36,406 bases of DNA, taken from positions 1 to 36,406 of the forward strand of contig CAITDR010000606.1 of assembly GCA_903891165.1 (NCBI GenBank), read 5' to 3'. Below are positions 1 to 29,764 of this stretch, piece by piece. Position numbers and translations under genes: made by a program. Position 1 is the first letter of the stretch, and every line of letters begins with the position of its first letter. This DNA comes from an uncultured Pseudomonadota bacterium (GTDB lineage: Bacteria > Myxococcota_A > UBA796 > SXON01). The notes beneath the pieces are model-generated. The model saw only the letters and a program-made list of their open reading frames with translations. It had not been told where the DNA came from and did not search any database.

Positions 1-1189
1 CCAACAGGTGCCCGAGCTGTTCCCGTCGGGCGGCAAGAAAAGCGTCCCTATCCGGGTGCGGCGTGGTGCGCAGCGGAATCCTCTCGACGACATTCAGTCC
101 AAAGCCTTCGAGGCCGACAATTTTGCGCGGGTTGTTGGTGAGCAGACGCAGGCTGGTCGCACCCAGGTCGCGGAGAATCTGCGCACCCGTTCCCATATCG
201 CGCAGGGCATCCTTGCCGGAGGGCGCGGCTTCGGGGCTCATGTGCTCGCGGAGGCGGGAGAGGAAGCGGTCCGGGGAGCCGCCGTCGATGTTCAGGTAGA
301 GGAGGATACCCCGATTTGTTTCGGAGATCGCCGAGAGGGCGGCGCGCAATTGCCCGCTGGAGTCCGAAGCCAGAGAGCGGAAGACGTCCACCGGACCGCA
401 GGCGGTCTGCACCCGGGCGAGTACCGGTGCCCCGGAGGGTTCCCCTTTCCATAGCGCGAGGTGCAGGCTTCCATCGTGAGAACGGTACACACGGCTTTGA
501 AAATTGCCGTACTCTTCCGTGGGAAAAGCCGCCTCCAAAACCCGCTCTACCTGGCGTTCCGTGCGCAGACGATAGCGGACGAGGTCTGCCACCGTCACGA
601 TGTGGATGTGGTGCTTGGCCCCGAAGCGCTCCAGGTCAGGCAGGCGTGCCATGGTGCCATCTTCGTTCATGATCTCGCAGATCACCCCCGAAGGATTCAG
701 CCCCGCCATCCTCGCCAGATCCACAGAACCTTCGGTCTGGCCGGTGCGGACCAACACCCCACCATTCCGGGCGCGAAGTGGGAAGACATGGCCAGGGGTG
801 ACCAGATCGTCGGGAACGGTGGCGGGATCGATGGCCACTTTCACCGTTTGTGCCCGGTCCGCGGCCGAGATTCCCGTGGTCACCCCTTCCCGCGCTTCGA
901 TGGACACCGTAAATGCGGTGGAGAAGGGCGAGCGGTTGTTGGTGGCCATCATCGGCAACGCGAGGCGATCCACCTGGGCTTCGGTCAAGGTGAGACAGAT
1001 CAGCCCGCGGCCATGGGTGGCCATAAAGTTGATCGCCTCCGGCGTCACCATCTCCGAGGCCATCGTCAGATCGCCTTCGTTTTCGCGATCTTCGTCGTCC
1101 ACGAGGATGACGATTTTACCAGCGCGGATGTCTTCAATGGCTACCTGTACCCGGCGGTCGGGATCGGGAGACATCACTTCGAATTCCAT
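1..1189 (-). CDS. ribBA: RibBA: DHBP synthase with degenerate GTP cyclohydrolase II half (3' end off the window)
   Basis: I translated this frame by hand from the ATG at 1189; it stays open to the left edge (396 visible codons), so only the extreme C-terminus is missing. The N-terminal half is a 3,4-dihydroxy-2-butanone-4-phosphate synthase, which makes the four-carbon unit of riboflavin from ribulose 5-phosphate. It keeps the acidic motif VDDEDRENEGDL, the THGRGLICL segment and the TPGHVFPLRA segment. The C-terminal half follows the GTP cyclohydrolase II fold and ends in the typical LLTNNPRK and GLEGFGL motifs. Its zinc/catalytic motif is eroded: the usual ECLTGDVFGSxRCDCG reads ACGPVDVFRSLASDSSG, so two of three zinc cysteines are Ser, and the RQEGRGIG loop reads NIDGGSPD. 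I infer an active RibB half and an inactive RibA half. The gene lies 9 bp after ribE and is last in the visible operon. Confidence 0.9.
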   Translation of the reverse strand, partial: MEFEVMSPDPDRRVQVAIEDIRAGKIVILVDDEDRENEGDLTMASEMVTPEAINFMATHGRGLICLTLTEAQVDRLALPMMATNNRSPFSTAFTVSIEAREGVTTGISAADRAQTVKVAIDPATVPDDLVTPGHVFPLRARNGGVLVRTGQTEGSVDLARMAGLNPSGVICEIMNEDGTMARLPDLERFGAKHHIHIVTVADLVRYRLRTERQVERVLEAAFPTEEYGNFQSRVYRSHDGSLHLALWKGEPSGAPVLARVQTACGPVDVFRSLASDSSGQLRAALSAISETNRGILLYLNIDGGSPDRFLSRLREHMSPEAAPSGKDALRDMGTGAQILRDLGATSLRLLTNNPRKIVGLEGFGLNVVERIPLRTTPHPDRDAFLAARREQLGHLL

Positions 1190-1198
1190 AGGTCCTCT

Positions 1199-1828
1199 CT
1201 ATGCGAAGCCGTGTTCGCGAAGTTTATTCAAATCCAGACCGCCGCCAGGGGCGCCCAAAAGGCGCTCCACATATTTGGCAAGCAGGTCTACCTCCAGGTT
1301 GACCCGATCCCCCGGCCGCAGCGCGGCGAGGCGGGTCACCGTCTGGGTGTGCGGGATAATTCCCACCGAAAATCGACTTCCTTCTACGGAATTGACCGTC
1401 AGGCTCACTCCGTCGATGCAGATACTGCCCTTGGCCACGATGTAGCGGGCCAATTCCGAAGGAGCCTCGATCTCGATGCCCAGCCAGCCCGGCTGGGGGG
1501 TCAAAGAACGAAGCACCCCCACCCCATCCACATGGCCCTGGACGATGTGCCCCCCCAGGCGATCTCCGAGGCGCAAAGCGCGCTCCAGGTGGACGTTCTG
1601 CCCAACACTTCGGTGGCCCCAGGTGGTCCGACGCAGCGTCTCCTCCCCTGCCGTCACCTGAAAACCGGCCGCATCCATGGCTTCCACGGTCAGACAGACG
1701 CCGTCACAGGCAATACTCTCGCCCAGCTCCAGACCGGTGTAGGGCGCATTGATCCAGAGCAGACGCCCCGTTCCTGCGGATCGGATACTGCGAAGGGTGC
1801 CCAGAGCACTGACCAGTCCGGTAAACAT
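1199..1828 (-). CDS. ribE: Riboflavin synthase, alpha subunit
   Basis: A 209-residue protein starting with the family hallmark MFTGLV. Two lumazine-binding repeats are visible: roughly residues 1-97, and 98-200 beginning at HIVQGHVDGVG. The enzyme dismutates two 6,7-dimethyl-8-ribityllumazine molecules into riboflavin and the pyrimidine precursor. Length matches the family. It lies 3 bp downstream of ribD and 9 bp upstream of ribBA, so the three are almost certainly co-transcribed. The lumazine synthase gene (ribH) that usually follows ribBA would lie beyond the left edge. This gene is often labelled ribC or ribE depending on the species. Confidence 0.96.
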   Translation of the reverse strand: MFTGLVSALGTLRSIRSAGTGRLLWINAPYTGLELGESIACDGVCLTVEAMDAAGFQVTAGEETLRRTTWGHRSVGQNVHLERALRLGDRLGGHIVQGHVDGVGVLRSLTPQPGWLGIEIEAPSELARYIVAKGSICIDGVSLTVNSVEGSRFSVGIIPHTQTVTRLAALRPGDRVNLEVDLLAKYVERLLGAPGGGLDLNKLREHGFA

Positions 1829-1831
1829 CGT

Positions 1832-2920
1832 TCAGCCGCGACTCGGGTAGTCCGCCGGAAGGCGCCCGTCCAGGTCCGCCTCCAGGCGAAGGTGGAGATC
1901 CTCGCCCACGGGGGCACTGCTTACAAAGCGGAAGGCGGGCGCCGAGGAGAGGTGAAAGCCCGGTCCCGACATCAGACCCGCCGAGCCGCCCAGGAGCCGC
2001 CCGTTGACAAAAAGCTCCAGCACGTCCACGAGGTCCCCGTCCAGAAGTGACCGGTGTACCTGGCCGCCCCCCTCCGCGAGTACCCGATGATAGCCCCGGC
2101 GGGCCAATTCGCGAAGAACATCCTGGATCGGTAGACGATCCTGCTGGAGGGGGAGGCGGACAAGATCTGCCGGCAGCTCACGTTCTTCCGCCTGCTCGCC
2201 ACAAAAGATCAGAGGCTTTCGCCGAAGCAATTTTGAATCGGCCGGAATGCGGAGCTGGCTGTCCAGCACCACAGGACGGGCATCCCGCCCACCCGGGATC
2301 CGCGTCGTCAGCTCGGGATCATCGGCAAGCACCGTGCCGATGCCGACCAAAACGGCGTCATGCCGATCTCTCAGGTGGTGGGCCGCCTCGCGCGCCGCCG
2401 GGCCGGTGATCCATCGGCTTTCTCGATAGTCCGAGGCAATTCTTCCATCCAAGCTCATCCCGGCCTTCAGGCTGACCATCGGCAGCCCAAGGAGCGTAGA
2501 CCGGAAAAAGCCAAGATTCATCCTTCGACAATCCTGCCCCCGCAGCCCCACATCCACCTGAATTCCGGCCTCGCGAAGACGACGCACCCCCGCCCCAGAC
2601 ACCAAGGGAAAGGGATCGATCGTACCCACAACAACACGACGGATCCCGGCTTTGATCAAGGCATCGGTGCAGGGTGGGGTGCGCCCCCAGTGGCAGCAAG
2701 GCTCCAGGGTGACGTACATCGTCGCGCCTTCCGCCGGGCCGCTCACCTGTCGCAACGCGTTCACCTCGGCGTGATCCTGGCCAGGAGGCTGGGTAAAACC
2801 CTCTGCCAGCAGCTCGCCGTCGCGGACGATCACCGCCCCCACCACCGGGTTGGGCGCTGTACGTCCCAGCCCTCGTGCTGCCACCTCCAGCGCCAGCCCC
2901 ATCCACCGGGCATCGCTCAC
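1832..2920 (-). CDS. ribD: Bifunctional riboflavin deaminase/reductase RibD
   Basis: A 362-residue bifunctional cytosolic enzyme for the second and third steps of riboflavin synthesis. The N-terminal deaminase domain (about 1-145) has the zinc site: HAEV near residue 50 and the PCCHWGRTPPC motif with two zinc cysteines. The C-terminal reductase domain (about 148-355) carries SLDGRIA, an ITGPAAREAAH segment and the NADPH-site segment VLAEGGGQVH. Its ATG overlaps the stop of nrdR by 4 bp, which suggests translational coupling. Length is normal for the fused form, and both active sites look intact. Confidence 0.97.
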   Translation of the reverse strand: MSDARWMGLALEVAARGLGRTAPNPVVGAVIVRDGELLAEGFTQPPGQDHAEVNALRQVSGPAEGATMYVTLEPCCHWGRTPPCTDALIKAGIRRVVVGTIDPFPLVSGAGVRRLREAGIQVDVGLRGQDCRRMNLGFFRSTLLGLPMVSLKAGMSLDGRIASDYRESRWITGPAAREAAHHLRDRHDAVLVGIGTVLADDPELTTRIPGGRDARPVVLDSQLRIPADSKLLRRKPLIFCGEQAEERELPADLVRLPLQQDRLPIQDVLRELARRGYHRVLAEGGGQVHRSLLDGDLVDVLELFVNGRLLGGSAGLMSGPGFHLSSAPAFRFVSSAPVGEDLHLRLEADLDGRLPADYPSRG

Positions 2921-3366
2921 TGATCCTCCAGCAGCGGGCGAAGCACCTCCATAAAATCTTGAGGGCTGCCCAAGGCCTGGTAGACCGACGCAAAGCGGAT
3001 GTAAGCCACCGGATCCATCCCCCGCAATTCTTCAAGGGCCACCTTACCGATCTCGTGGGTACTCACCTCACGCTCGGCACGACGGGCCAGCTGCTGCTCT
3101 ACCCGGCCAACCGCCGCATCAATCGCCTCTTCCGAGATCGGGCGCTTTCTGCAGGCGAGGCGAATGCCCTCCCCCAGCTTGTCGCGATCAAAGGGCTCAC
3201 GGCGCCCATCCCGCTTCACCACCATGGGCATACGGACTTCTGCCCGCTCAAAGGTGGTAAAGCGATGACTACAACTGATACACTCCCGACGACGGCGCAC
3301 AGAGTCCCGGGACTCCCGAGAGTCCACCACGCGGGTCTCTTCGTGCTGGCAGGCGGGACACTGCAC
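2917..3366 (-). CDS. nrdR: Transcriptional repressor NrdR
   Basis: A 149-residue zinc-ribbon/ATP-cone regulator that represses ribonucleotide reductase genes according to ATP/dATP level. The zinc ribbon is at the N-terminus: C3-P-A-C6 and C31-I-S-C34 type pairs around the RRRRECISC segment. The ATP-cone follows from about residue 46 (VVKRDGRREPFDRDKL). The start is a GTG immediately after the glyA stop codon; the next gene, ribD, overlaps its stop by 4 bp. The glyA-nrdR-rib order is common in proteobacteria and related lineages. No NrdR-box was identified in this window. Confidence 0.96.
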   Translation of the reverse strand: MQCPACQHEETRVVDSRESRDSVRRRRECISCSHRFTTFERAEVRMPMVVKRDGRREPFDRDKLGEGIRLACRKRPISEEAIDAAVGRVEQQLARRAEREVSTHEIGKVALEELRGMDPVAYIRFASVYQALGSPQDFMEVLRPLLEDQ

Positions 3367-4614
3367 CTACAGCCCCGGCACCGGAAAGCCGGCGGTCAAA
3401 GCCTGGACCCGCTGACGTACCGACGCAAGCACTTCGGGCTTCTGCCAGCCTTCCAGGGCCTCGGTGATCCACAGGGCAATCTGGCGCGCCTCGGCCTTGC
3501 CCATACCCCGGGTGGTCATCGCCGGACTGCCGATCCGGACGCCGCTGGTGATAAAGGGGCTGCGCTTTTCGTTCGGTACGGTGTTTTTATTGACGGTAAT
3601 CCCTGCTTTTCCGAGTGCCTCTTCGGCATCTTTCCCCGAGTAAGGCCGCTCCGAAAAGTCCAGCAACATCAGGTGGTTGTCGGTACCGCCGGAGACCAGT
3701 GCAAAACCCTGCTCCATCAGGGTCTCGGCCATCACCTGTGCATTCTCCAGTACCTTCGCCGAGTAGTCCTTGAAGGAGGGCCGGAGCGCCTCGCCAAAGG
3801 CCACTGCCTTGCCCGCGATCACATGCAGCAGCGGCCCGCCCTGAAGGCCGGGGAACACCGCCGAATTCAGGCCTTTCATGCGGTCGGCCTTGGCCAACAC
3901 CAGCCCCCCACGCGGACCGCGAAGGGTCTTATGTGTAGTGGTCGATACATAGTCGGCATGCGGGAAGGGGTTGGGGTGATGCCCCGTGGCCACCAAGCCC
4001 GCCACATGCGCAATGTCGGCCACCAGGATGGCGCCCACTTCGTCGGCAACCGAGCGGAAAGCGGCAAAATCCCAGAAGCGCGGGTAGGCTGAGGCGCCGG
4101 TCATGATCAACTTCGGGCGCTCACGTAGGGCCACCTCGCGCACCTGATCCATGTCAATTCGTCCGGAAGCATCCACACGATAATGCACCGCATGGTAGAT
4201 TTTCCCGGAGGAATTCGCCGACGATCCGTGGGTGAGGTGCCCGCCGTTGGAGAGGTCCAGCCCCAGGAGCACATCGCCTGGTTTCAGGGTGGCCAGGTAG
4301 ATGGCACCGTTGGCCTGTGCGCCGGAGTGGGGCTGCACATTCGCACCAATCTCGCAGCCGTCAACCTGAAAAAGCTGGATGGCGCGACTGCGGGCCAGCT
4401 CCTCTATTTTGTCCACCTCTTCGCAGCCACCGTAGTAGCGCTTTCCCGGCAATCCCTCGGCATATTTGTTGGTAAGCACCGAGCCGGTGGCCTCCATCAC
4501 CGCCGCTGAGGTGTAGTTCTCCGAAGCGATCAGCTCCAGATCCTCACGCTGGCGACGGCGTTCCGACTGGATAATGTGGAAAATATCGGGATCGGTAGCT
4601 TCGAGCGCGCTCAT
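3367..4614 (-). CDS. glyA: Serine hydroxymethyltransferase
   Basis: A 415-residue PLP enzyme that interconverts serine and glycine while loading one-carbon units on tetrahydrofolate. The PLP lysine is K229 in the signature [14 protein letters not shown]. Also visible are the N-terminal IASENYTS motif, the [11 protein letters not shown] segment and the [10 protein letters not shown] segment with the PLP-contacting Asp and His. Length is typical of bacterial enzymes. Its start codon overlaps the stop of rpiB by 4 bp and its stop abuts the nrdR GTG, so it sits inside one operon. Confidence 0.98.
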
Positions 4615-5057
4615 ACATCCTTCCTGTCGAGTGCCTGGATCATGCCCACCCGCCGGGCATGGCGGCCACCCTCATAGGGGGTGGAAAGAAAAATTTCAAG
4701 GATCTGCGCCGCCAATCCAGGTCCCACCACCCGCTCGCCCAGGCAAAGCACATTGGCGTCGTTGTGTTGGCGGGTAGCCGCTGCGGTGAAGCCTTCCGAG
4801 ACCACCGCTGCCCGGACGCCGGGAATCCGGTTGGCGACCATGGCCATACCCTGGCCGGTGCCACAGACGAGAAGCCCAAAATCAGCGTTGCCCGCCGATA
4901 CCTGGCGGGCAACGGCCACGGCGTAGTCGGGGTAGTCCACCGAGGCGCTCTCCAGGGTGCCCAGGTCCTCCACCTCACGACCGGACTTCCGAAGCTGCTC
5001 CACTAGCACTTTTTTCAAGCTCAACCCGGCATGATCACTGCCTGCAACAACGCGCAT
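4611..5057 (-). CDS. rpiB: Ribose-5-phosphate isomerase B
   Basis: A 148-residue RpiB/LacAB-type isomerase converting ribose 5-phosphate to ribulose 5-phosphate, the direct substrate of the RibB domain encoded downstream. The start [11 protein letters not shown] gives the family N-terminus; a longer frame from 5099 would overlap fabF and is less likely. The catalytic cysteine is C65 in [10 protein letters not shown], and the [12 protein letters not shown] motif follows. The gene starts 2 bp after fabF and overlaps glyA by 4 bp. The rpiB-glyA-nrdR-rib order is a known conserved cluster. Confidence 0.95.
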
Positions 5058-5059
5058 CT

Positions 5060-6298
5060 TCACTCCTCCCAGCGACGGAACACCAGCGTGGCATTGCAAC
5101 CACCAAAGCCGAAGGCGTTGGAGAGCACCACCTGAGGGTTCGTCCGTCGCGCATGGTTGGGAACGTAGTCCAGGTCACAGTTTGGATCCGGATGGCTCAG
5201 GTTTGCGGTGGGCGGAAGGATCCCGGTGCGCAGGGCCATCACGGCCGCCACCGCTTCGACACCGCCCGCAGCCCCCAACAGGTGCCCGGTCACACTTTTG
5301 GTGCTGGAGATCGCCAGCTTGCGCGCGTGATCCCCAAAAACACTCTTAATCGCCTGCGTTTCGTTTACGTCGTTCTGAGGGGTGGATGTGCCATGGGCAT
5401 TGATATAGTCCACCTGTTCCGGCTGCAGACCCGCCGAACGCAGAGCCATCCGCATACAGCGAGCGGCACCGGCGCCAGCGGGAGCCGGAGCGGTGTCGTG
5501 GAAGGCATCGTTGGTCAGGCCATAGCCCACCAGCTCGGCCAGGATCGTTCCTCCCCGACGCTGTGCGTGCTCCAGCTCCTCCAAAACAAGAATTCCCGAG
5601 CCTTCGCCCATGACAAAGCCATCGCGGTCGGCATCAAAGGGGCGACTGGCCGTGGCGGGATCGTCGTTACGTTTGGACAGGGCTTTCATGACCGCAAAGC
5701 CGTTGAGTCCCAGTGGGATTACTGCGGCCTCGGCACCCCCGGCAAAAATGCGATCGGCGTCGCCCGCGCGGATCGCCCGCCAGGCTTCGCCGATGGAATG
5801 GTTGCCGGTGGCGCAGGCGGTGCTCACGCAGAGCGAAGGCCCCTGAGCGCCGAAATGCAGCGCCAGCTGCCCACAGGCCATATTCGTGAGCGCGCGGGGG
5901 ATAAAGAGGGGGGAAAGCCCCTTGTAGCCTTCCTGAGCAAACAGATCTGCGCCGGTCACGATCTCATGGAGACCGCCAATCCCCGTGCCCACATAGATGC
6001 CCAGGCGTTCATCGCCCTCGGCATCCGGTCTGATACCCGCCATGGCCGCGGCTTCTATCGAAGCCACCATGGCATATTGCGTAAACAGATCCTGTCGACG
6101 CGCCTGTTTGCGCCCGAGGATCCCGTCCACGTCAAAGTTTTTGACCTCGGCGGCGATACGCACAGGGTATTGAGAGGCGTCAAAGCGCCGGATCAGCCCC
6201 ACGCCAGAGCGCCCCGCCACCATGGCATCCCAGGTGGCGGCGACATCATTGCCGCATGGGGTGACCGCACCGAGGCCGGTAACTACGACCCTGCGCAA
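5060..6298 (-). CDS. fabF: Beta-ketoacyl-ACP synthase II
   Basis: A 412-residue condensing enzyme of type II fatty-acid synthesis that elongates acyl-ACP with malonyl-ACP. The Cys-His-His triad is clear: C162 in STACATG, H302 in INAHGTST and H339 in SVTGHLLGAAGG, with K334 between the histidines. The C-terminal GFGGCNA motif is present, and length matches FabF. It lies 20 bp after acpP, its protein substrate carrier, and 2 bp before rpiB. The Cys-His-His rather than Cys-His-Asn triad separates it from FabH. Confidence 0.97.
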   Translation of the reverse strand: MRRVVVTGLGAVTPCGNDVAATWDAMVAGRSGVGLIRRFDASQYPVRIAAEVKNFDVDGILGRKQARRQDLFTQYAMVASIEAAAMAGIRPDAEGDERLGIYVGTGIGGLHEIVTGADLFAQEGYKGLSPLFIPRALTNMACGQLALHFGAQGPSLCVSTACATGNHSIGEAWRAIRAGDADRIFAGGAEAAVIPLGLNGFAVMKALSKRNDDPATASRPFDADRDGFVMGEGSGILVLEELEHAQRRGGTILAELVGYGLTNDAFHDTAPAPAGAGAARCMRMALRSAGLQPEQVDYINAHGTSTPQNDVNETQAIKSVFGDHARKLAISSTKSVTGHLLGAAGGVEAVAAVMALRTGILPPTANLSHPDPNCDLDYVPNHARRTNPQVVLSNAFGFGGCNATLVFRRWEE

Positions 6299-12332: not shown

Positions 12333-13556
12333 ATGCAGAGCCTCCTCCTCCTCGCCCCCCTGGCCCTGGCCAACGGCCAGACCTCCCATGCCTGGATCAC
12401 CCTCCACGCTCTGGAGCATCTCCCTGCGGGAGAACTTCGTGACTTTTTAAGCCGCGAAGATCTGCGTACCATGCTGATCAATGGCACCATGTTTCCCGAC
12501 GGGGGCTACCCTCAGCACGACGACTATGGAGAGATGGCCCACTGGGAGCCCTTTCAGTCCCGCTATCGCGACTGGATCCTGGCCCAACAACAGGCTCCCT
12601 ATTCCGACGATATGGCACAGCATGTCGCTTTCTACCTGGGGATGTCCTCTCATGGGATGGCGGACCAGGTCTACGATTCGCTGTACATGGAGCGCGCCAA
12701 ACAACACGACGCGGCCTCGGACTGGGGGGCCTACTCGATGGACGAGGCGACCGACGTGGCCTATGCCGCCTTGCAGGGGCCGATCACCGCCCCTGCGGAC
12801 TGGGTGCCCTACGATACCTTCCTCCAACTGTACACGGAAGCAGGTCATCCAGTGACGCGAGACCTGATGTCTACCGGGCAAGGAATGCTGCGGGTGGCCA
12901 TCGGCTTTGTGGGCGCCAGCTCTCAGGTCCCTGAAACCCTTACCAAATACGAAGACCGTTTTCCCTGGGCCACCACCCACCTGGACGACCCCGAAGCCCA
13001 CGGGAACCCCGCCTGTGAAGGGGCGGTGATCGCCCGCTACTGGCAGGTTTTGTGGGATAGACTACAGGAACGGCCGTCCGGGCTGGAGCCGGTGCTCCAG
13101 AGCTTTCCCTCAGTGGGCCAACGTGTGCAGTCTCGCGACCACACGCTGGTAGAATCCAGGGTCAGCTTGGTTTTTTCACGCGGGATTGATACCAACACCC
13201 TGAACAGCAACCTCTTTCATGTCCGGGATGCTGCTGGGAAGGACTTCCCCTTCGAGCTGCAGGTCTTCTACGGCTACTCCTCGCACGTGGTCCACCTGAT
13301 TCCCCTTCAGGATTGGACTTCTGACATGGACTATACCATTACCGTGGATGCTGGTGTCCCGACCTTCGAGGGCGACAGCTTCGCCGCCTACGCCGGCTCC
13401 TTCACAACCCGCTCGCCAGCGACTTCTCCCCTTCCCTCCACGGAAAAAGGGTGTAGCACCACCGCAGGTGCCGATTGGGCTGGCCTGTTTCTGGGGCTGA
13501 CCGTCGTCTTGTGCAGGCGTAGAACGGGGGGCAATACCCCCGAAGCCGTTCAGTAA
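12333..13556 (+). CDS. Secreted zinc-phospholipase-C-like protein with MYXO-CTERM-like anchor
   Basis: A 407-residue exported protein. Residues 1-15 form a signal peptide (QSLLLLAPLALANG). The next 180 residues are rich in spaced His/Asp/Glu: SHAW, LHALEH, FPDG, MAHW, then HVAFYLGMSSHGMADQVYD and MDEATD. This pattern resembles the zinc-dependent phospholipase C/S1-P1 nuclease fold. Residues about 265-365 form a beta domain of the Big_5/SwmB type (VSLVFSRGIDTNTL, YTITVDAG). The C-terminus has Cys374, a hydrophobic helix and an RRR cluster, the layout of MYXO-CTERM sorting signals, followed by a 10-residue tail. The substrate is unknown. It is convergent with the BMC-T gene and overlaps its end by 7 bp. 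Confidence 0.68.
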   Translation: MQSLLLLAPLALANGQTSHAWITLHALEHLPAGELRDFLSREDLRTMLINGTMFPDGGYPQHDDYGEMAHWEPFQSRYRDWILAQQQAPYSDDMAQHVAFYLGMSSHGMADQVYDSLYMERAKQHDAASDWGAYSMDEATDVAYAALQGPITAPADWVPYDTFLQLYTEAGHPVTRDLMSTGQGMLRVAIGFVGASSQVPETLTKYEDRFPWATTHLDDPEAHGNPACEGAVIARYWQVLWDRLQERPSGLEPVLQSFPSVGQRVQSRDHTLVESRVSLVFSRGIDTNTLNSNLFHVRDAAGKDFPFELQVFYGYSSHVVHLIPLQDWTSDMDYTITVDAGVPTFEGDSFAAYAGSFTTRSPATSPLPSTEKGCSTTAGADWAGLFLGLTVVLCRRRTGGNTPEAVQ

Positions 13557-14200
13557 AAGGCAGCACCGGGACCGGGATTTTCGCGACCGTCGATGCTGTC
13601 CAGCACCGCAATTGCCGCCTTGGCAGCCTCGGCGATCTCGTCCTCGCTGCCGCCCAGATACAGCCGCCCGAAAGCGCCGAAGGACACAATCTCCAGGATG
13701 TCGATCTTTGCGGCTTTTTCAGCCTCGTTTGCGGCAATCAGCGCATAGCCGGCGGGATGTACTTCGAGTACCCACATCGTGGCCCCCTCGTCCAGCACAT
13801 TCCCGTGGCGGAAGCGGTTGACGATCTGCGCATGGTAGCCGGTCACCCCGGTGATGGTCTGCCCCGACACAATCCGGGGCCGCAGCCGATCCTGCACCTT
13901 CAAGTGCAGTGCATCCAGCACCGCCTCGCCCGCCGCACGAACCTGCCCCTGATCGTAGGAGTGCAGCTCCAAACAGCCAAACTGCCTCTCCACTATCTGC
14001 ATGCCGGGGGTGCAGGAGGTATTCTTCAACGCGATGTCGGTCACCAGGTTGATATCCATCCCCGGCGCCACTTCAAAGAAGACCGAAGCCTTGTTCTTCA
14101 GCGGCATGTACCCGCGCGAGACGGTGGCCAGAAAAGAGGCGGTCTGCGGCTGCAGAACGTCGATGTAGGTGAAGCAGCGTAGCTCGATACCGGAGGCCAT
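13550..14200 (-). CDS. Tandem-domain bacterial microcompartment shell protein (BMC-T)
   Basis: A 216-residue protein with two BMC domains in tandem. Domain 1 spans about 36-100: helix DINLVTDIALKNTSC, strand GMQIVERQFGCLELH, then DQGQVRAAGEAVLDAL. Domain 2 spans about 135-205: WVLEVHPAGYALIAANEAEKA as one block, then the strand VSFGAFGRLYLGG and EIAEAAKAAIAVL. Such proteins form pseudohexameric trimers in the shells of protein organelles. By alignment to the BMC fold, the pore loop of domain 1 is QFGC (Cys76) and that of domain 2 is FGAFG. No other shell gene (BMC-H or BMC-P) and no encapsulated enzyme is in the window. A ferredoxin gene lies 24 bp upstream on the same strand, so the two probably form an operon. 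Confidence 0.85.
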   Translation of the reverse strand: MASGIELRCFTYIDVLQPQTASFLATVSRGYMPLKNKASVFFEVAPGMDINLVTDIALKNTSCTPGMQIVERQFGCLELHSYDQGQVRAAGEAVLDALHLKVQDRLRPRIVSGQTITGVTGYHAQIVNRFRHGNVLDEGATMWVLEVHPAGYALIAANEAEKAAKIDILEIVSFGAFGRLYLGGSEDEIAEAAKAAIAVLDSIDGRENPGPGAAFY

Positions 14201-14224
14201 GCCCGCCCTCGTAGATCCGACCCT

Positions 14225-14686
14225 CTAACCTGCTGTGGTCTTTCCCGGAAGCCCCTCCACCAGACTCAGCGCCCCGGACGGACATGCCGCCACACAGGCG
14301 GGTTCGCGATTCAGCGGTTTACATCCGTCACATTTGACCGCAATCCCCAGCTCCGTCACCCGCCGGATGGCCCGAAAAGAGCATGCCGCGATGCACTTTC
14401 CGCAGCCGGTACAGCGATCCTCGCGGAGATCCACCCGTCCATCTGGAAAGCGCAGGAGTGCGAGGTGGGGACAGACCGGCACGCAGGGGCTTTCCGTGCA
14501 GTGGGTGCACACGTCCAAGCTGGGCTCTATCGCCCACTCCCGGACCGCAAGGCGGCGCCGCTCCAGCACAAAGGGGTCGTCTGCCTGGAAAGGTCCTCCC
14601 CCATAGCGGGCCTCCACACAGGCGATCTCGCAGGCGTGGCAACGGGTACACAGGGAGGGATCCAGCACCGGGTAGCGGAAGGCCAC
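14225..14686 (-). CDS. Ferredoxin-type electron carrier with four [4Fe-4S] motifs
   Basis: A 153-residue iron-sulfur protein of the HycB/CooF/DmsB type. Sixteen cysteines fall in four groups: C13-x2-C16-x2-C19-x3-C23; C60-x2-C63-x4-C68-x3-C72; C92-x2-C95-x2-C98-x3-C102; and C119-x2-C122-x8-C131-x3-C135. No signal peptide or Tat motif is seen, so it is likely cytosolic. The start is GTG with an AAGGAGG Shine-Dalgarno just upstream. Relatives pass electrons between oxidoreductase subunits such as formate dehydrogenase, hydrogenase or CO dehydrogenase. Here its only partner is the BMC-T shell gene, 24 bp downstream. Confidence 0.92.
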   Translation of the reverse strand: MAFRYPVLDPSLCTRCHACEIACVEARYGGGPFQADDPFVLERRRLAVREWAIEPSLDVCTHCTESPCVPVCPHLALLRFPDGRVDLREDRCTGCGKCIAACSFRAIRRVTELGIAVKCDGCKPLNREPACVAACPSGALSLVEGLPGKTTAG

Positions 14687-14743: not shown

Positions 14744-15325
14744 ATGCGCCTGTTTTCCGCCCTCCTGCTGCTGCCGCTGCTGACCGGCTGCGATCCCGAC
14801 TGTACCGACTTTGACCGTATCGACGGCACCTGGTCGGTGTGGATGACGGTGGACAATGTGCCCCGCGATGGCAGCGAGGGCGGCCTGGTCCTGTCTGAGG
14901 GCTACCCCACCGAGGAGCTTTTTATCAACGGGACCACGAAGTGGAAGCTGAACTATCAGGCCTCCTCGGAGCGCACAACCGTCCTGATGAATGATGTGTT
15001 GGAGCCCACCGACCTACCGGGGGAAAACGATGTGTTCACCCAGGTGGAGATCTCGGGATCGCTGAAGCAGGACCCCGACAACTGCAACGTGCTGGATCTG
15101 GCCATGGAAGACAGCTACGAAGCCTCGACCACCGCTTTTACCGGCGAGATCCTCACCGAAAGCAACCACGACTTCAACTTCAGTGCCACACTCGTCTATG
15201 CGGGCGACCAGCTTTCGGGCACCTTCACCTACAGCGACACCATGCGGGGGCTGGATGGCGATGGAGTGCCCTTTGAAGGCTCTATTTCGGACGCCACCGG
15301 CACCTTTATCGGCACCCGGCAGTAG
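14744..15325 (+). CDS. Predicted outer-membrane or periplasmic lipoprotein
   Basis: A 193-residue protein of unknown function. The start at 14744 gives a lipoprotein signal, MRLFSALLLLPLLTGCDPDC, with the lipobox LLTGC. The mature part is acidic and appears all-beta, with repeated Thr/Gly/Ser-rich strands (DGTWSVWMTVD, GQ-like GSLKQDPDN, FTGEILTES, DQLSGTFTYSD). A lipocalin-like or jellyroll barrel is possible. A GGAG Shine-Dalgarno precedes the ATG. The open frame extends upstream into the divergent ferredoxin gene, which I reject as coding. The Asp after the lipidated Cys would suggest inner-membrane retention under E. coli rules, but that rule may not hold here. Confidence 0.75.
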   Translation: MRLFSALLLLPLLTGCDPDCTDFDRIDGTWSVWMTVDNVPRDGSEGGLVLSEGYPTEELFINGTTKWKLNYQASSERTTVLMNDVLEPTDLPGENDVFTQVEISGSLKQDPDNCNVLDLAMEDSYEASTTAFTGEILTESNHDFNFSATLVYAGDQLSGTFTYSDTMRGLDGDGVPFEGSISDATGTFIGTRQ

Positions 15326-15346: not shown

Positions 15347-16480
15347 GTGCGCGAGCGCTGGAAATCGGTTAGCGCCGCCGCCATGTATACCCTCCTGATT
15401 TCGGCGGGCGCGGGGCTTGTGGGCTTTGCGCTGGGTGCGGCGGCGGTGAATGCGTGGGCGGGTTTTATTCCCGGTCTGTTGGCCTTCGTCCTCGTCTTTC
15501 TGCTGCTCTCGCGTCGTACCATGGCGCAGGTGCAGGCGATCTTTGCCACCGCGCAGGGTCAGCTGCAGAAAGCGCCACCGCCCAACATCATGCACGACCT
15601 CCAGGAAGCCCAGCGGCAGGCCCAGAATCCGCCGCCCGAGCTGATGCGCAAGCTGCAGGAGGCCCAGCGCAACGGCGACCAGCGCGGCTTCAACCGTGCC
15701 CGTGAAGGGCTTATGGAGTTTCAAGCGACCAAACAGCGCGAGTTTGACAAGGCGCGCGAAGCGATGATCGCCTACCAGCGTAGCCAGCGCGAGGAGGTAC
15801 GGAACGTTCTCCGATCCGCGTTAATCCATGAAAAATGGCAATATCTGGTTCGGGAGAACGTCTACACCCAGCTGGGCACCATCGACTACCAGGAGGGCGT
15901 CGAGGCGGTGATGATGCGGCAGCAGGAGGCCACTGGGCGCAGCATCGACATCGGTACCCTACCAGATACCGCGGGTCCCTACTTTGAACAAGCGCGGGAT
16001 AACCTGCAAAAAGCATGGCACCCCCAGCTTTCTTCGGTCCTGAAGGACTGGCGCTCGCGTGCACTGTTGGCGGCGGTCCACCACCGGCTGGGGGAGGCTG
16101 AGCTGGCTCAGAAAGTGCTGGGAGAGGCCGAAGCGGCAGGTACCCTGGAGCCCACCTATTGGGGGCTTCGCGCCTGGCTTTTGTCGGGGAAACCTGACGA
16201 AGCGATGCAGATCGTCGGCAAGGGTCTGGTGGCCTGCCCCAGCTCGCAGGCTCTGAAAGAGCTGCAGGCTCAGCTCACCAACAAAAAGCCCCTCAATATG
16301 GAGGGCTTCGGCGACACCTGGTACCAGTTCTTCCCCGATCAGATTCCCCAGTCCAAACGGGATGAAATGGCGCGTGCGGCAGGTATGGAAGTGCCGACCC
16401 AGAACGTCTCTTCCGCGCCTCAGCAGGCGGCCAACCGCCCGCCCATCCCCCAGAAGACCTGGCCCCATCCGCGTCGGTAG
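15347..16480 (+). CDS. Membrane-anchored protein with coiled-coil and TPR-like regions
   Basis: A 377-residue protein of unknown function. Two adjacent hydrophobic helices sit at about 13-52 (TLLISAGAGLVGFALGAAAV and FIPGLLAFVLVFLLL). A long Gln/Arg/Glu-rich helical or coiled-coil stretch follows at about 55-145 (QVQAIFATAQGQL, LMRKLQEAQRNGDQ). Alpha-alpha repeats resembling TPRs lie at about 205-310 (YFEQARDNLQKAW, HHRLGEAELAQKVLGEAE). The tail is Pro/Gln-rich. The start may be the GTG at 15347 or the ATG at 15383; neither has a good Shine-Dalgarno. It lies 21 bp after the lipoprotein gene and is probably co-transcribed. Confidence 0.75.
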   Translation: MRERWKSVSAAAMYTLLISAGAGLVGFALGAAAVNAWAGFIPGLLAFVLVFLLLSRRTMAQVQAIFATAQGQLQKAPPPNIMHDLQEAQRQAQNPPPELMRKLQEAQRNGDQRGFNRAREGLMEFQATKQREFDKAREAMIAYQRSQREEVRNVLRSALIHEKWQYLVRENVYTQLGTIDYQEGVEAVMMRQQEATGRSIDIGTLPDTAGPYFEQARDNLQKAWHPQLSSVLKDWRSRALLAAVHHRLGEAELAQKVLGEAEAAGTLEPTYWGLRAWLLSGKPDEAMQIVGKGLVACPSSQALKELQAQLTNKKPLNMEGFGDTWYQFFPDQIPQSKRDEMARAAGMEVPTQNVSSAPQQAANRPPIPQKTWPHPRR

Positions 16481-24600: not shown

Positions 24601-25908
24601 CTACAGATTCTGCGCCTTCCATGCGGTGATAATCGCAGTCAAAAGCGCCTCCTCCTCCTCCTCCCGCACCGTCCGCGGATCCAGCCGAAGGCTGCCTTCC
24701 TTCAGCCGACCCAGAACGGCCGGGCGGCCCAGGCGCAGGTGCCTGGCCAGCGCCACTACCGGCCCCTCCATGCACAACACCGGCCCCGGCAACCCCTCCC
24801 CCGGCAGAGATCCTCCGCCTGCAAAGCCTACATCCTCAACAATTGTCGATGGAATACCAGCGTCCTTCAGCCTCTCCTGCCAGCGCCGGAGCCGAGGCAT
24901 CAGAAGCTTCCCTTCCACCTGGATCATCTGCACGGCGGGTGGCAGCTCGCCCGATAGATAGCCACGCAGGGTGGCCTCCAGCGCCGCCAGTACCAGACGA
25001 TCCACCCGAAGTGCACGATAGAGCGGGTGTTTTCGCAATTTCTGGATCAGATCCGCCCGCCCTACCAGGATGCCCGCTTGCGGCCCACCCAGCAGCTTGT
25101 CTCCCGAGAACATCACCAGATCCACCCCTTGATCGAGCAATTCGGCCACGGTCGGCTCGCCCAGGCCAGCCACGAGCGCGCCCGCGCCCAGATCCTCCAG
25201 GAGTGGGATGCCGCGAAGATGGGCGGCCTCGGCGAGCTTTTTGCGATCGGGCTTTTCTGTGAAGCCTGTGACCTTAAAATTGGAGGGGTGTACCAGCAGC
25301 CATGCCCCCGTATTCACCCCACTGGCATTTTCGTAGTCTACATTACGGGTCCGATTGGTTGTGCCCACTTCTACCAGCCGGGCGCCCCCCTGAGCGATCA
25401 CCTCGGGCACCCGGAAGCTGCCGCCGATCTCCACCAGCTCGCCGCGCGACACCACCACTTCTCGGCCCGCTGCAATGCCGGAAAGCGCCAGAAGTACGGC
25501 TGCAGCATTGTTATTGACCACCAGGGCGTCGGCAGCACCACAGAGTTCGGCCAAGAGCCCACGCACCGGCCCCAGCCGCTCGCCGCGCTCTCCCGTCTCC
25601 AGATCCAGCTCCAAGTTGATATAGCCCTGGGCCGCCGTCGCAACCGCCGCGGCAACTGACGCCGACATCGGCGCCCGGCCCAGGTTGGTGTGCAACACCA
25701 CCCCGGTTGCGTTGATCACCGGCCGGAGCATCGGTAGCTGTTCCCGTTCGACACGTTGAATAAGCGCTTGTACCCAGTCTTCTGGTGCAGGTTTTCCTGC
25801 GCGCACTTCAGCGACCAAGCGGCGCGCCTCCCGCAGCGCGAGGCTACGAGGGAGCTGGGGCACCTGCCGGAGCAGGCGATCGATAGCGGGCAACGCGCGA
25901 GGATCCAT
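24601..25908 (-). CDS. selA: L-seryl-tRNA(Sec) selenium transferase
   Basis: A 435-residue PLP enzyme that converts seryl-tRNA(Sec) to selenocysteinyl-tRNA using selenophosphate. Visible motifs are RPVINATGVVLHTNLGRAP (62-80), VNNNAAAVLLALS (131-143) and the PLP lysine K271 in FSGDKLLGGPQAG. I chose the ATG at 25908 (MDPRALPAIDRLL); an in-frame ATG at 25944 would overlap the divergent kinase. Length fits bacterial SelA. Its presence means the cell likely makes selenoproteins; selB, selD and tRNA-Sec are not in the window. It is upstream of the J/RodZ gene and rluD on the same strand, with 88 bp to the former. Confidence 0.96.
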   Translation of the reverse strand: MDPRALPAIDRLLRQVPQLPRSLALREARRLVAEVRAGKPAPEDWVQALIQRVEREQLPMLRPVINATGVVLHTNLGRAPMSASVAAAVATAAQGYINLELDLETGERGERLGPVRGLLAELCGAADALVVNNNAAAVLLALSGIAAGREVVVSRGELVEIGGSFRVPEVIAQGGARLVEVGTTNRTRNVDYENASGVNTGAWLLVHPSNFKVTGFTEKPDRKKLAEAAHLRGIPLLEDLGAGALVAGLGEPTVAELLDQGVDLVMFSGDKLLGGPQAGILVGRADLIQKLRKHPLYRALRVDRLVLAALEATLRGYLSGELPPAVQMIQVEGKLLMPRLRRWQERLKDAGIPSTIVEDVGFAGGGSLPGEGLPGPVLCMEGPVVALARHLRLGRPAVLGRLKEGSLRLDPRTVREEEEEALLTAIITAWKAQNL

Positions 25909-25930
25909 GCAGACGGGATAACCGGCTGCG

Positions 25931-28051
25931 GTGAATGTCTTCATCTATGCCCTGACCGGGATGTTGACCCTGGTCATCGCCGCCCGCACCTTGCGTCGCG
26001 ACCCGACCCAGCCACTACGTCTGGCTTTTGCCCGTCTGGCGATGGCAATTGCCGGTGTCTGGCTTTGTTTCTGCGCCTACCTGCTTTTGGATACCGATCT
26101 GCTGCGCCTGCTTCGGGGCGCCATCGCCATCGCGGTCCCCTTCTACTTCCGAGCCTTCCTGGATGCGCTGCTGGGGGCCGAGCGGCGGCCAGAGGAGCTG
26201 CCCGGACCGCTGCGCTCCCCTGCCCTCCCCTGGGGCTTTCTCCTGGTCTACCTCGGGCTTTCCCTGACCGCACGGCAGTGGGACATCCTGTGGCTGGCGC
26301 GCGGCACCGAGGTGGGGCTGGGCACGGTGCTGTTGGGACTTTTATGCGTGGAAGCTCTACGATTGCTCCGTCTGGCCTCGGTACAGGAGCTGCCGCTGGA
26401 GCAGGGGCGCCTGCGCAACCTGCTGGTGCTGATGGGTGTGCCGGTGATCCTCCTGGGCATCGAGGCGATCGGACGATTCCAAGCCGGACCCATTGAACAC
26501 AACTTAGACCTACTCTATCGAGCGGTCCAACTACAGGGGGTTGCGCCGCCTACCAGTGCTATTCTTGCGACGGTTTCGATCTACATCCTGTCCCAGGCGG
26601 TGAGCCGCCAGCGGATGCTGGACCTGGACGAGCTGATTCTGGTGGTTTCCCGTGGGCTTACCCAGGTGGGCAACATCGGTGCGGCCGCGGCGGCGCTGGG
26701 CGCGGTGACGCTGATCCAGGTGGGTCCGTCGATGCCGGGTCACTCCTCATTCCAGGCGATCCTGGCGGTTCTTCTTGGCTTGTTGGCCTTGGACCCGGTA
26801 CGGGGTTGGCTGGAGGGGCATGCCCTGGAGTGGCTGGATCGCCGAGGCCAACGCCTGCGCGAGGCGATGCAGCAGGTGGATGCGGGGCTGGCCCGGGTGA
26901 TCTCCACCGATGGCCTCGCCGATGAGTTGCTGGGAAGGCTGGTCGGAAGCGGAAGAATCCGCTCCGCGTCGCTGTATCTGTGGGAGGGCGAGCGCGGCTC
27001 TTACCGGCTGAACAACCGCAGAGGGGAGGGAGAAGGCGGACAGTTGGAGAGGCTGGCCGGAGAGCCGCTGCGCGCGGTGTTGCCCCGTCGGAACGCACTG
27101 GTGCGTCCCTGGCTGGAGGTGGAGCGACGCCACTTTCCCAACCAGATGGAAGAAGCCAATGGAATCCTTCGGATTTTGGATGGCATGCGGGCGGATGCAG
27201 CTCTGCCGCTGCGCACCGGAGAGACGCTCTTGGGCTGGCTGGTGCTCTCGGATGGCGACGGGGGTGGCTTTTCGGTGGAGGAGATGCGGCGGCTGGAAGC
27301 GCTGACGGGAAGAGTCAGCATTATCCTTGAAAATCTCCACGACTTCGAGCGTCTGAAGGAGATGCACCGGCTCGCCGCCCTGGGTACCATGGCCGCCGGG
27401 CTGGCGCATGAGATTCGCAACCCCCTGGCCGGGATCAAAGGGGCTGCACAATATCTTCAGACCGACGATGGCCCACCGGACGGGGAGATGGTGCAGGTGA
27501 TCGTGGACGAGGTGGATCGTCTCAACGGGGTGGTTACCCAATTTCTGGACTATGCCCGTCCCCTCCAGTTGAATCTGGAGCCGGTACGCCTGGACCAGTT
27601 GATCGCCCAGGTGGCCAGCCTGCTGCGGGCCCAGGGCCTCGGTGAAGTCCGTTGGGAGGAGGACATTTTGGAAGATCTTCCAACTATATCTGTGGATGCC
27701 CCGCGCCTGAAGCAGGTCCTCTTAAATCTCTGCCAGAATGCCGTCCAGGCTATAAAGGGCGATGGAACGCTGAGGATCCGGGTGCGCTCCGGTCGCTTCC
27801 AAAACCCCCAATTGTGGGACCACCGCTGCCTGGAGCTGGCGGTGGAGGACAGCGGACCAGGAATCCAGCCTTCAGACCTGGATCAGATCTTCGTCCCCTT
27901 CTTTACCACCCGCGCCGACGGCACCGGTCTGGGGCTGCCCATCTGTCAGCGGATCGTGCAGGCCCACCGGGGCGAGCTGGACGTACAGACCACCGTCGGC
28001 AAAGGGAGTGTGTTCACCGTTCGGCTCCCTCTGGAGAATTCAGATTTTTGA
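25931..28051 (+). CDS. Membrane sensor histidine kinase, NtrB-like
   Basis: A 706-residue kinase. The first 295 residues hold about seven hydrophobic segments, forming a membrane sensor. A GAF-like domain lies at about 315-468. The dimerisation/phosphoacceptor site is H493 in AAGLAHEIRNPLAG, the type seen in NtrB-like kinases. The ATPase domain has the N box LLNLCQNAVQAI (N603), DSGPGI, FFTTRADGTGLGLPI and a final G-rich box. The GTG at 25931 is assumed; an ATG at 25961 is also in frame. No response regulator is adjacent. Its start is only 22 bp from that of selA on the other strand, and its 3' end overlaps mobA by 38 bp. Confidence 0.9.
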   Translation: MNVFIYALTGMLTLVIAARTLRRDPTQPLRLAFARLAMAIAGVWLCFCAYLLLDTDLLRLLRGAIAIAVPFYFRAFLDALLGAERRPEELPGPLRSPALPWGFLLVYLGLSLTARQWDILWLARGTEVGLGTVLLGLLCVEALRLLRLASVQELPLEQGRLRNLLVLMGVPVILLGIEAIGRFQAGPIEHNLDLLYRAVQLQGVAPPTSAILATVSIYILSQAVSRQRMLDLDELILVVSRGLTQVGNIGAAAAALGAVTLIQVGPSMPGHSSFQAILAVLLGLLALDPVRGWLEGHALEWLDRRGQRLREAMQQVDAGLARVISTDGLADELLGRLVGSGRIRSASLYLWEGERGSYRLNNRRGEGEGGQLERLAGEPLRAVLPRRNALVRPWLEVERRHFPNQMEEANGILRILDGMRADAALPLRTGETLLGWLVLSDGDGGGFSVEEMRRLEALTGRVSIILENLHDFERLKEMHRLAALGTMAAGLAHEIRNPLAGIKGAAQYLQTDDGPPDGEMVQVIVDEVDRLNGVVTQFLDYARPLQLNLEPVRLDQLIAQVASLLRAQGLGEVRWEEDILEDLPTISVDAPRLKQVLLNLCQNAVQAIKGDGTLRIRVRSGRFQNPQLWDHRCLELAVEDSGPGIQPSDLDQIFVPFFTTRADGTGLGLPICQRIVQAHRGELDVQTTVGKGSVFTVRLPLENSDF

Positions 28052-28511
28052 ACGCGCCTATATTCACAATCGTAAGCTGGGATACAAAGTCATAGACGCG
28101 GCCGCCCCGTGCGGCCAGAGACCTTGATTTTTCCCACAAAGAAGCTGGAAAAACCCCCAAAAGAGGCTGGCCCGCAGCATAGACCCCTTCCGGGTGCTCC
28201 TCCCAGGCCTCCAACAGCCGCCGCAGCGCCGTTGCCTCCAGATCCGGCAGGTCGCAGGGACAGAAGAGCGCCGCCCCCTCCTGCAGGCCAGCGGCCACCC
28301 CCCAAAGTGGATGGCGTGACGACCGCTCTTCTTCCAGAAGCTCGGGGATACCAATGTTTCTGACGTGCCGTCCCACCAAGATCGGCTCCAGACCCGCCTC
28401 CGCCATACGGGCGGCGATCCGCAGCGCCAGTGGTTGCCCACCTATCTGAAAAAGCGCCTTATCCGTGCCAAAACGCGAAGACAGCCCGCCAGCCAGGATA
28501 CAGCCGCGCAT
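28014..28511 (-). CDS. mobA: Molybdenum cofactor guanylyltransferase
   Basis: A 165-residue nucleotidyltransferase that adds GMP to molybdopterin to form the bis-MGD cofactor. The signature is ILAGGLSSRFGTDKAL near the N-terminus, and FCPCDLPDLEA holds the metal-binding aspartate region. The C-terminal NLNSPEG corresponds to the NINTPED box. It is somewhat shorter than E. coli MobA. Its ATG overlaps the moeA stop by one base (TGATG), so translation is probably coupled. The 3' end overlaps the kinase gene on the other strand by 38 bp. Confidence 0.9.
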   Translation of the reverse strand: MRGCILAGGLSSRFGTDKALFQIGGQPLALRIAARMAEAGLEPILVGRHVRNIGIPELLEEERSSRHPLWGVAAGLQEGAALFCPCDLPDLEATALRRLLEAWEEHPEGVYAAGQPLLGVFPASLWEKSRSLAARGGRVYDFVSQLTIVNIGAFKNLNSPEGAER

Positions 28512-29764
28512 CAGCAGCCGTCGTCGTGGGCGGGTACCTCGGCGGACCAGGGGTAAAAAGGCTCTTCCGCGCAGAGGAAAGAGTTGTCGAAAACCTGCAC
28601 CCAAACCCGATCTTCCAGTAAGACCTCGTCGAGATCGGCCAGAAGAAGTCCGTGCGCCTGGGCCATGGCTGCCAAATTGCCGCTGCCCTGGTGCCCACCC
28701 ACAGCGCGCGCCCACAGCTGCTCCCCATCGTGACGCAGCGCCACACGGAGGAGCTCGGGACGATCGGGACGACGTTTGATCGGCGCCTCCAATCTGGCAC
28801 GGAGTACCGGCAGAAAAGGGCGCGGATCCCCCACCATCAACCGGATCATCGGCCGCACGAACTGTAGGAAATTCACCATACAGCTGACGGGATTGCCGGG
28901 CAGGCCGAAGATGGGGCGGCTGCCGATATTGCCAAAGGCCAGCGGTTTTCCGGGCTTCATCCAGACTTTCCAGAAGTCCATGACTACCCCCAGATCCTGG
29001 AGCACCTCCTTCACATAGTCGAAGTCGCCCACACTCACCCCGCCAGTGGACAGCAGGATGTCGCAGCGGAGTCCCTCGTGGAAAGCTGCCTTTAACGCCG
29101 CTGGTTCGTCACGCACGATGCCCAGATCCACCGGAACCCCGCCCGCCTGCTCCACCAGGGCCGCCAAAGAGCGGCTGTTGGAGGACCAGATCTGCCCATG
29201 ATCGAGGGGAAAGCCCGTTTCTACGACCTCATCCCCGGTGGAGAGGATGCCCACCCGGGGGCGCACGGCCACACGCAGGCTGGGCACCCCCACCGCAGCC
29301 GCGAGGCCCAGCGCACCGGCCCCGAGCACCGTCCCCGGCTGCAGGACGACGGTCCCCGCCTGCAGATCTGAACCTTTTCGGCGGATATGCTGCCCTTCTC
29401 GGGGTTGCCGCCGGAAGCTCACCTCCTCCCCCTCCCCCTCGCTCTCCTCCACCATCACCACGGCGTCGGCGCCGGCCGGTACGGGCGCACCCGTCATAAT
29501 CCGCGTCGCGGTTCCTTTTTCAACTGGAAACTGCGGCACCGCACCCGCCGCCACCGTCTCCAACACCCGCAGGCGACCGGGCAGATCGGCCCAGCGCACC
29601 GCAAAGCCATCCATCGCCGAGTTGTCCCAGGCGGGAAGATCGATGGTAGAAACAACAGCTTCGGCCAGGACCCGGCCCAAGGCCTGACTCAACGGCACCC
29701 GCTCGGTGGCCAGCGGCGGCACATGCGGGAGGATACGGTCGAGGGCTTCTTGAACGCTCAGCAT
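28511..29764 (-). CDS. moeA: Molybdopterin molybdenumtransferase
   Basis: A 417-residue enzyme that inserts molybdate into adenylylated molybdopterin. Typical motifs are PAWDNSAMDGFAV (45-57), RIMTGAPVPAGADAVVMVE, GILSTGDEV, SNSRSLAALVEQAGG, STGGVSVGDFDYV and FGLPGNPVS. The four-domain MoeA length is normal. It starts 10 bp after the lytic transglycosylase gene and couples to mobA. Together the two genes complete the final steps of Mo-bis-MGD cofactor synthesis. Confidence 0.96.
   Translation of the reverse strand: MLSVQEALDRILPHVPPLATERVPLSQALGRVLAEAVVSTIDLPAWDNSAMDGFAVRWADLPGRLRVLETVAAGAVPQFPVEKGTATRIMTGAPVPAGADAVVMVEESEGEGEEVSFRRQPREGQHIRRKGSDLQAGTVVLQPGTVLGAGALGLAAAVGVPSLRVAVRPRVGILSTGDEVVETGFPLDHGQIWSSNSRSLAALVEQAGGVPVDLGIVRDEPAALKAAFHEGLRCDILLSTGGVSVGDFDYVKEVLQDLGVVMDFWKVWMKPGKPLAFGNIGSRPIFGLPGNPVSCMVNFLQFVRPMIRLMVGDPRPFLPVLRARLEAPIKRRPDRPELLRVALRHDGEQLWARAVGGHQGSGNLAAMAQAHGLLLADLDEVLLEDRVWVQVFDNSFLCAEEPFYPWSAEVPAHDDGC

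What the first reader, a model, noticed from the sequence alone, without database searches (positions are those of the whole stretch)
13550..14686. Isolated BMC-T shell gene paired with a four-cluster ferredoxin
A tandem-domain microcompartment shell protein and a 16-cysteine ferredoxin are adjacent on one strand, 24 bp apart, with no BMC-H, BMC-P, aldehyde dehydrogenase or other cargo gene within the 36 kb. BMC shell genes normally sit in large loci. This may be a satellite locus for a shell encoded elsewhere, or a shell-type protein used outside an organelle, with the ferredoxin as its electron partner.
Basis: partly seen in the sequence, partly recalled or inferred. Interest (0 to 1): 0.85.

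Follow-up and report, generated by a model that had tools for sequence, protein, structure and literature searches.

The report
Microcompartment satellite gene with ferredoxin partner
An uncultured myxobacterium-like bacterium carries, away from the main gene cluster of a protein-shelled organelle, one extra gated shell protein whose gene is paired with an electron-carrying ferredoxin; the organelle is of a known type, but the pairing, conserved in one bacterial family, looks new, and its purpose is inferred rather than shown.

Summary
Window 13550-14200(-) encodes a CcmP/CsoS1D-type tandem shell protein whose best sequence and fold match is Haliangium ochraceum BMC-T3, HO-3341 (E 3.6e-78; TM 0.96). 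Window 14225-14686(-) encodes a four-cluster ferredoxin with 16 conserved cysteines, 24 bp upstream.

It is not an orphan shell gene. The same genome encodes one BMC-H, three BMC-P, a BMC-Tsp, the second BMC-Tdp, an aldehyde dehydrogenase with an encapsulation-type N-terminus, and an EutB-EutC-EutL satellite. This is an HO-type microcompartment. Two relatives have its main locus 42-47 kb from the pair on the same contig.

The pair is a family-level trait. It is adjacent in 16 of 22 genomes of the taxonomic family. In all 5 genomes of one genus the ferredoxin sits beside cyanophycinase instead. One genome lacks both genes. No other genome sampled in the order (63) has the ferredoxin.

BMC-T3 in this family carries unique substitutions (Q73, C76, usually E78Q and H80Q) just behind the invariant pore gate Glu71-Arg72. 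That suggests, but does not prove, a redox accessory to the shell. The main rival is a passenger ferredoxin. Satellite status about 0.95; functional link about 0.45.

The parts
13550..14200 (-). BMC-T3: tandem-domain (BMC-Tdp, CcmP/CsoS1D/HO-3341 type) shell protein, 216 aa
   Evidence: PDB 5v76 E 3.6e-78; fold match TM 0.96 to 5v76; NCBIfam CcmP 263 bits, below its 340-bit equivalog cut-off
14225..14686 (-). Four-cluster (4 x [4Fe-4S]) ferredoxin of the HycB/HydN/DmsB kind, 153 aa, GTG start
   Evidence: Fer4_11 E 4e-15; best PDB match formate hydrogenlyase subunit 2 E 1.4e-16; 16 Cys conserved
14201..14224 (-). 24-bp gap between the two genes, compatible with one transcript
   Evidence: sequence; short gaps also in relatives
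13985..13990 (-). Codons for pore-gate residues Glu71-Arg72 (CcmP Glu69-Arg70)
   Evidence: invariant in 47 of 47 aligned sequences; gate role in CcmP as stated in PMC13316943
13961..13981 (-). Gate-proximal strand, residues 74-80, including family-specific Cys76; this genome keeps the ancestral Glu78 and His80
   Evidence: strand 75-81 in the model
14744..15325 (+). Divergent lipoprotein-like gene; conserved flank, sits directly upstream of BMC-T3 in outgroups lacking the ferredoxin; not thought to be part of the system
15389..16480 (+). TPR-like membrane protein gene; conserved upstream flank; not thought to be part of the system

Best explanation
The pair is a satellite locus of an HO-type bacterial microcompartment whose main locus (BMC-T2, BMC-H, BMC-P, aldehyde dehydrogenase, BMC-Tsp, BMC-P, BMC-P) and ethanolamine module (EutB-EutC-EutL) lie elsewhere in the same genome. 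This part is shown by sequence. BMC-T3 most likely forms a trimer, or stacked double trimer, that sits as a special tile in the facet and carries a large Glu/Arg-gated pore; this is inferred from its homologues HO-3341 and CcmP. In this family the gene was joined by a four-cluster ferredoxin, inserted between BMC-T3 and its ancestral upstream neighbour. The likeliest mechanism, which is inferred, is that the soluble ferredoxin is made together with the tile and serves as its redox accessory, taking electrons from or giving them to reactions of the shell or its cargo (NADH made by the aldehyde dehydrogenase, or cobalamin reactivation for EutBC). It may dock at the altered gate-proximal face (Cys76 and neighbours). 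Confidence: satellite status about 0.95; functional redox link about 0.45.
For: HO-type set in the same genome: BMC-H best natural match HO-5815, BMC-T2 best match HO-5816 E 3.2e-87, a BMC-P best match from the HO shell structure, three BMC-P in all, aldehyde dehydrogenase 646 bits and EutC/EutL, EutB end. Contigs C199 and C460 end inside the locus that is continuous in G171 and G113. Pairing adjacent in 16 of 22 family genomes across four genera, while the downstream flank differs between genera. Outgroups have the same upstream flank next to BMC-T3 without the ferredoxin. Family-specific BMC-T3 substitutions cluster behind the gate: 4 of 5 internal ones fall within 8 residues (simulated P 0.0004). 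No other Fe-S protein was seen in the main locus or EUT module of a well-assembled relative.
Against: In genus g3 all five genomes keep both genes but apart, with the ferredoxin divergent from cyanophycinase. BMC-T3 occurs without this ferredoxin across the phylum. The ferredoxin shows no obvious encapsulation peptide. Cys76 and the ferredoxin are both traits of one clade, so their coincidence is a single evolutionary event. This genome itself keeps Glu78/His80. Cys76 does not align with the cluster-binding cysteine of PduT (hand alignment).
Confidence: 0.45

Rival explanations
1. BMC-T3 is an ordinary HO-type satellite shell gene, and the ferredoxin is a passenger: an independent four-cluster electron carrier serving some other enzyme, which landed beside BMC-T3 in the family ancestor and stayed by ordinary synteny.
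For: In genus g3 the ferredoxin is stably placed next to cyanophycinase, not BMC-T3. Unrelated upstream genes (lipoprotein, TPR) are also conserved beside BMC-T3, so background synteny is high. The protein resembles electron-transfer subunits of formate and hydrogenase enzymes, and all family genomes hold molybdopterin oxidoreductases.
Against: The adjacency with short gaps survives in four genera while the downstream flank changes; in genus g4 the TPR gene has left the upstream side but the pair remains.
Confidence: 0.4
2. A shell-type protein used outside any organelle, with the ferredoxin as its redox partner.
For: The two genes stand alone on this contig.
Against: The full HO-type shell set is in the same genome and in all 22 family genomes. 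The closest relative, HO-3341, is a structurally solved BMC shell protein and the gate residues are conserved.
Confidence: 0.04
3. The link is nitrogen storage rather than redox: the ferredoxin belongs with cyanophycin turnover, and its site by BMC-T3 reflects joint regulation of ethanolamine nitrogen use and cyanophycin.
For: Ferredoxin beside cyanophycinase and cyanophycin synthetase in all five g3 genomes. A cyanophycinase-like gene is in 21 of 22 family genomes and absent in G185, which also lacks the ferredoxin and BMC-T3.
Against: Outside g3 cyanophycinase is unlinked to the ferredoxin; the ferredoxin tree nests g3 among BMC-T3-linked sequences with moderate support; no ferredoxin step in cyanophycin hydrolysis is known to the writer.
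Confidence: 0.08

Closest known systems
HO-type BMC of Haliangium ochraceum and its BMC-T3 HO-3341 (PDB 5v76)
   Same: BMC-T3 is 58% identical to 5v76 over the fold alignment, TM-score 0.96; same shell inventory of one BMC-H, three BMC-T (plus EutL here) and three BMC-P; aldehyde dehydrogenase; EUT-module satellite as described for HO loci (PMC8217296)
   Different: BMC-T3 paired with a four-cluster ferredoxin; Cys76 behind the gate; BMC-Tsp closer to PduT than to the BMC-T structure 5dih that occurs in HO shell entries
PduT-PduS / GrpU accessory Fe-S system of PDU and GRM microcompartments (PMC6325248)
   Same: A BMC-T gene next to an Fe-S electron-transfer protein gene, no encapsulation peptide on the Fe-S protein
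   Different: PduS is an FMN/NADH flavoprotein, this is a four-cluster ferredoxin with no flavin domain; PduT is BMC-Tsp with a pore cysteine, this is BMC-Tdp without that cysteine; the pair here is outside the main locus
CcmP / CsoS1D
   Same: Same tandem fold and gate pair Glu-Arg
   Different: Carboxysome proteins; score here below the CcmP equivalog cut-off; no such ferredoxin neighbour came up in the papers read
HydN / HycB / DmsB-type four-cluster ferredoxins
   Same: Four 4Fe-4S motifs in one chain
   Different: No catalytic partner gene adjacent

Membership tests
HO-type BMC | BMC-P triplet | tested here: met
   three PF03319 genes
HO-type BMC | Aldehyde dehydrogenase in the locus | tested here: met
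   L010 9005-10405, NF011927 646 bits, N-terminus MERDQVEAIVSQVLGRLQKG of encapsulation-peptide type by inspection
HO-type BMC | HO-like BMC-Tdp proteins | tested here: met
   best PDB matches HO-5816 and HO-3341
HO-type BMC | Aldolase with the two BMC-P genes | tested here: inconclusive
   aldolase-like protein by inspection beside them in relative G185; none seen beside them on contig C460 of this genome
BMC satellite locus | Shell gene distant from a main locus holding BMC-H and BMC-P | tested here: met
   42 and 47 kb apart in G171 and G113
PF00936 BMC domain (Pfam cut-off) | Score above 24.5 bits | tested here: not met
   16.9 bits; homology is shown by other means
CcmP (NCBIfam equivalog) | Score above 340 bits | tested here: not met
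   263 bits
PduT-type Fe-S shell protein | Pore-loop cysteine binding a 4Fe-4S cluster | tested here: not met
   BMC-T3 has Arg72 at the equivalent place by hand alignment; the genome's PduT-like BMC-Tsp reads NIVEPGKF, Glu for Cys
PduS | FMN/NADH and RnfC-like domains | tested here: not met
   only Fer4-type domains in the ferredoxin
Four-cluster ferredoxin | 16 cysteines in four cluster motifs | tested here: met
Shell-bound redox accessory | Physical association with the shell | not testable with these tools
   needs co-purification or a complex structure

The most novel reading that the evidence does not exclude
BMC-T3 of this family is an electron-handling pore: the three Cys76 thiols per trimer and the altered gate-proximal strand form a docking or cofactor site for the co-expressed ferredoxin. 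That would be a shell-crossing electron route independent of PduS/PduT, in a microcompartment type whose function is unknown.
Probability: 0.1. Interest if true: 0.75.

Novelty: new variant of a known kind. Interest (0 to 1): 0.45.

Why it matters
HO shells are a main structural model for microcompartments, yet their natural function is described as enigmatic (PMC8217296). A family in which one shell tile is tied to a defined electron carrier gives a concrete handle on redox balance inside these organelles, and on whether electrons cross shells outside PduS/PduT and GrpU systems. If the ferredoxin is a passenger, the locus is still a clean example of a shell satellite about 40-50 kb from its main locus in the relatives where both lie on one contig.

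Tried and rejected
(1) Orphan shell protein outside an organelle: rejected, full shell set in the genome. (2) Fe-S cluster on the PduT-like BMC-Tsp of the same genome: rejected on sequence, Glu replaces the pore Cys. (3) Ferredoxin as partner of an adjacent molybdoenzyme: no such gene beside it, and molybdopterin oxidoreductases occur in all family genomes including G185, which lacks the ferredoxin, so the profile does not discriminate. (4) Cys9 and Cys63 as redox residues: both also occur in genomes without the ferredoxin. (5) AlphaFold model of the ferredoxin was poor (pLDDT 63) and not used. (7) Literature searches found no report of a BMC-T/ferredoxin pair of this kind in the held open-access library.

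Full report
What is there. The minus-strand ORF 13550-14200 (216 aa, ATG) and the ORF 14225-14686 (153 aa, GTG) are real and adjacent, with a 24-bp gap. The first scores only 16.9 bits against PF00936, below the cut-off. That is expected of the permuted tandem (BMC-Tdp) class and does not refute the assignment. NCBIfam CcmP scores 263 bits, below its equivalog cut-off. The closest solved chain is 5v76, H. ochraceum BMC-T HO-3341, at E 3.6e-78, followed by CcmP and then HO-5816. An AlphaFold model from 22 sequences (pLDDT 91.3) matches 5v76 with TM-score 0.96 and rmsd 1.3. The second protein has four 4Fe-4S motifs and is nearest to HycB-like electron-transfer subunits. Its 16 cysteines are kept in relatives. 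Substitutions concentrate at third codon positions in both genes.

The rest of the organelle. The window is a whole contig, C606, of a 7.05-Mb, 711-contig genome estimated 84% complete. Elsewhere the genome has five further BMC-domain matches and three BMC-P genes. Contig C199 begins with BMC-P, BMC-H and BMC-T2. Contig C460 ends with BMC-P, BMC-P, BMC-Tsp and an aldehyde dehydrogenase starting MERDQVEAIVSQVLGRLQKG, which by inspection looks like an encapsulation peptide. Contig C568 has the end of EutB, then EutC and EutL. BMC-H, BMC-T2 and the tested BMC-P are closest to HO shell proteins. In relatives G171 and G113 the two halves are one locus, and the BMC-T3/ferredoxin pair lies about 42 and 47 kb away on the same contig. 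The published HO description (a BMC-P triplet, HO-like BMC-Tdp, an aldehyde dehydrogenase, satellites including EUT modules with EutL; PMC8217296) fits. This is therefore a satellite of an HO-type BMC.

Conservation of the pair. BMC-T3 relatives (E below 1e-30) occur in 106 of 237 sampled genomes of the phylum; this count can include the paralogue BMC-T2. The ferredoxin at E below 1e-18 occurs in 17 of those 237, 16 of them in the window's own family. In the whole order, 21 of 63 genomes have it, all in that family. Among 22 family genomes, 16 have it directly upstream of BMC-T3. In one of these, G225, the two halves of the ferredoxin gene lie at two contig ends. All five g3 genomes have it beside cyanophycinase and cyanophycin synthetase, with BMC-T3 elsewhere. 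G185 lacks both BMC-T3 and the ferredoxin but keeps the rest of the shell. In the ferredoxin tree g3 nests among BMC-T3-linked sequences with moderate support (90/95), so BMC-T3 linkage is the likelier ancestral state of the family. Outgroup loci have the same divergent lipoprotein gene directly upstream of BMC-T3 without the ferredoxin, which indicates insertion. Downstream neighbours differ between genera.

The gate-proximal change. Glu71-Arg72, equivalent to the CcmP gate Glu69-Arg70 (PMC13316943), are invariant in 47 of 47 sequences. Residues fixed in this family and rare outside it are Q73, C76, Q78, Q80, A124 and the C-terminal Y216, with Q78 and Q80 in 19 of 20 family sequences. Glu78 and His80 are otherwise invariant (28 of 28, including the window itself). 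Four of the five internal positions lie within eight residues; a random draw of five gives this with P about 0.0004. That test was designed after seeing the pattern and ignores rate variation among sites. Residues 76, 78 and 80 alternate along the strand modelled at 75-81, so they should face one way. Because the family is a single clade, this association with the ferredoxin counts as one event, and it is present in g3 as well.

Mechanism. Shown: the gene inventory, the conserved pairing, the clade-specific changes. Inferred from homologues: trimer or stacked double trimer with a gated pore. Inferred only from linkage: a redox role of the ferredoxin at the shell. Two uses are reasonable, removing reducing equivalents generated by the aldehyde dehydrogenase and supplying electrons for cobalamin reactivation of EutBC; neither is tested. 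Gene pairing of a BMC-T with an Fe-S protein has a precedent in PduT-PduS (PMC6325248; PMC4207490), but the protein families and cofactors differ, so this is at most an analogue.

Assessment. The isolated appearance is explained by a fragmented assembly plus a genuine satellite position. The organelle is known. The ferredoxin pairing was not found in the catalogues' main texts or in the searched open-access library; supplementary tables could not be read, so it may be listed there.

Noticed in passing
L095-L098 and L113 (genus g3): The ferredoxin orthologue sits divergently beside cyanophycinase in a cyanophycin synthetase locus in all five genomes of one genus.
   Followed up: partly
L010:8427-9002: PduT-like BMC-Tsp of the main locus has Glu where PduT has its cluster-binding Cys.
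   Followed up: partly
L011:1-1888; L123; L124: Ethanolamine module of EutB, EutC and EutL; no EutA recognised beside it.
   Followed up: no
L125:4535-5260: Class II aldolase-like protein (by inspection) next to the BMC-P pair in relative G185, as described for type II HO loci.
   Followed up: no
window 2-5099: Riboflavin genes, nrdR, glyA and an rpiB-family gene; RpiB is a signature of sugar-phosphate BMCs but here lies in a housekeeping-looking cluster.
   Followed up: no
window 24601-25944 and 28511-29764: SelA (selenocysteine synthesis) and MoeA (molybdenum cofactor) genes in the same window as the ferredoxin.
   Followed up: no
L015, L023: Public records titled Klebsiella pneumoniae that hold this family's genes; apparently mislabelled metagenome bins.
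   Followed up: no
G113:C118:5175-5683: A second pair of BMC-P genes in one relative, possibly from a second strain in the bin.
   Followed up: no
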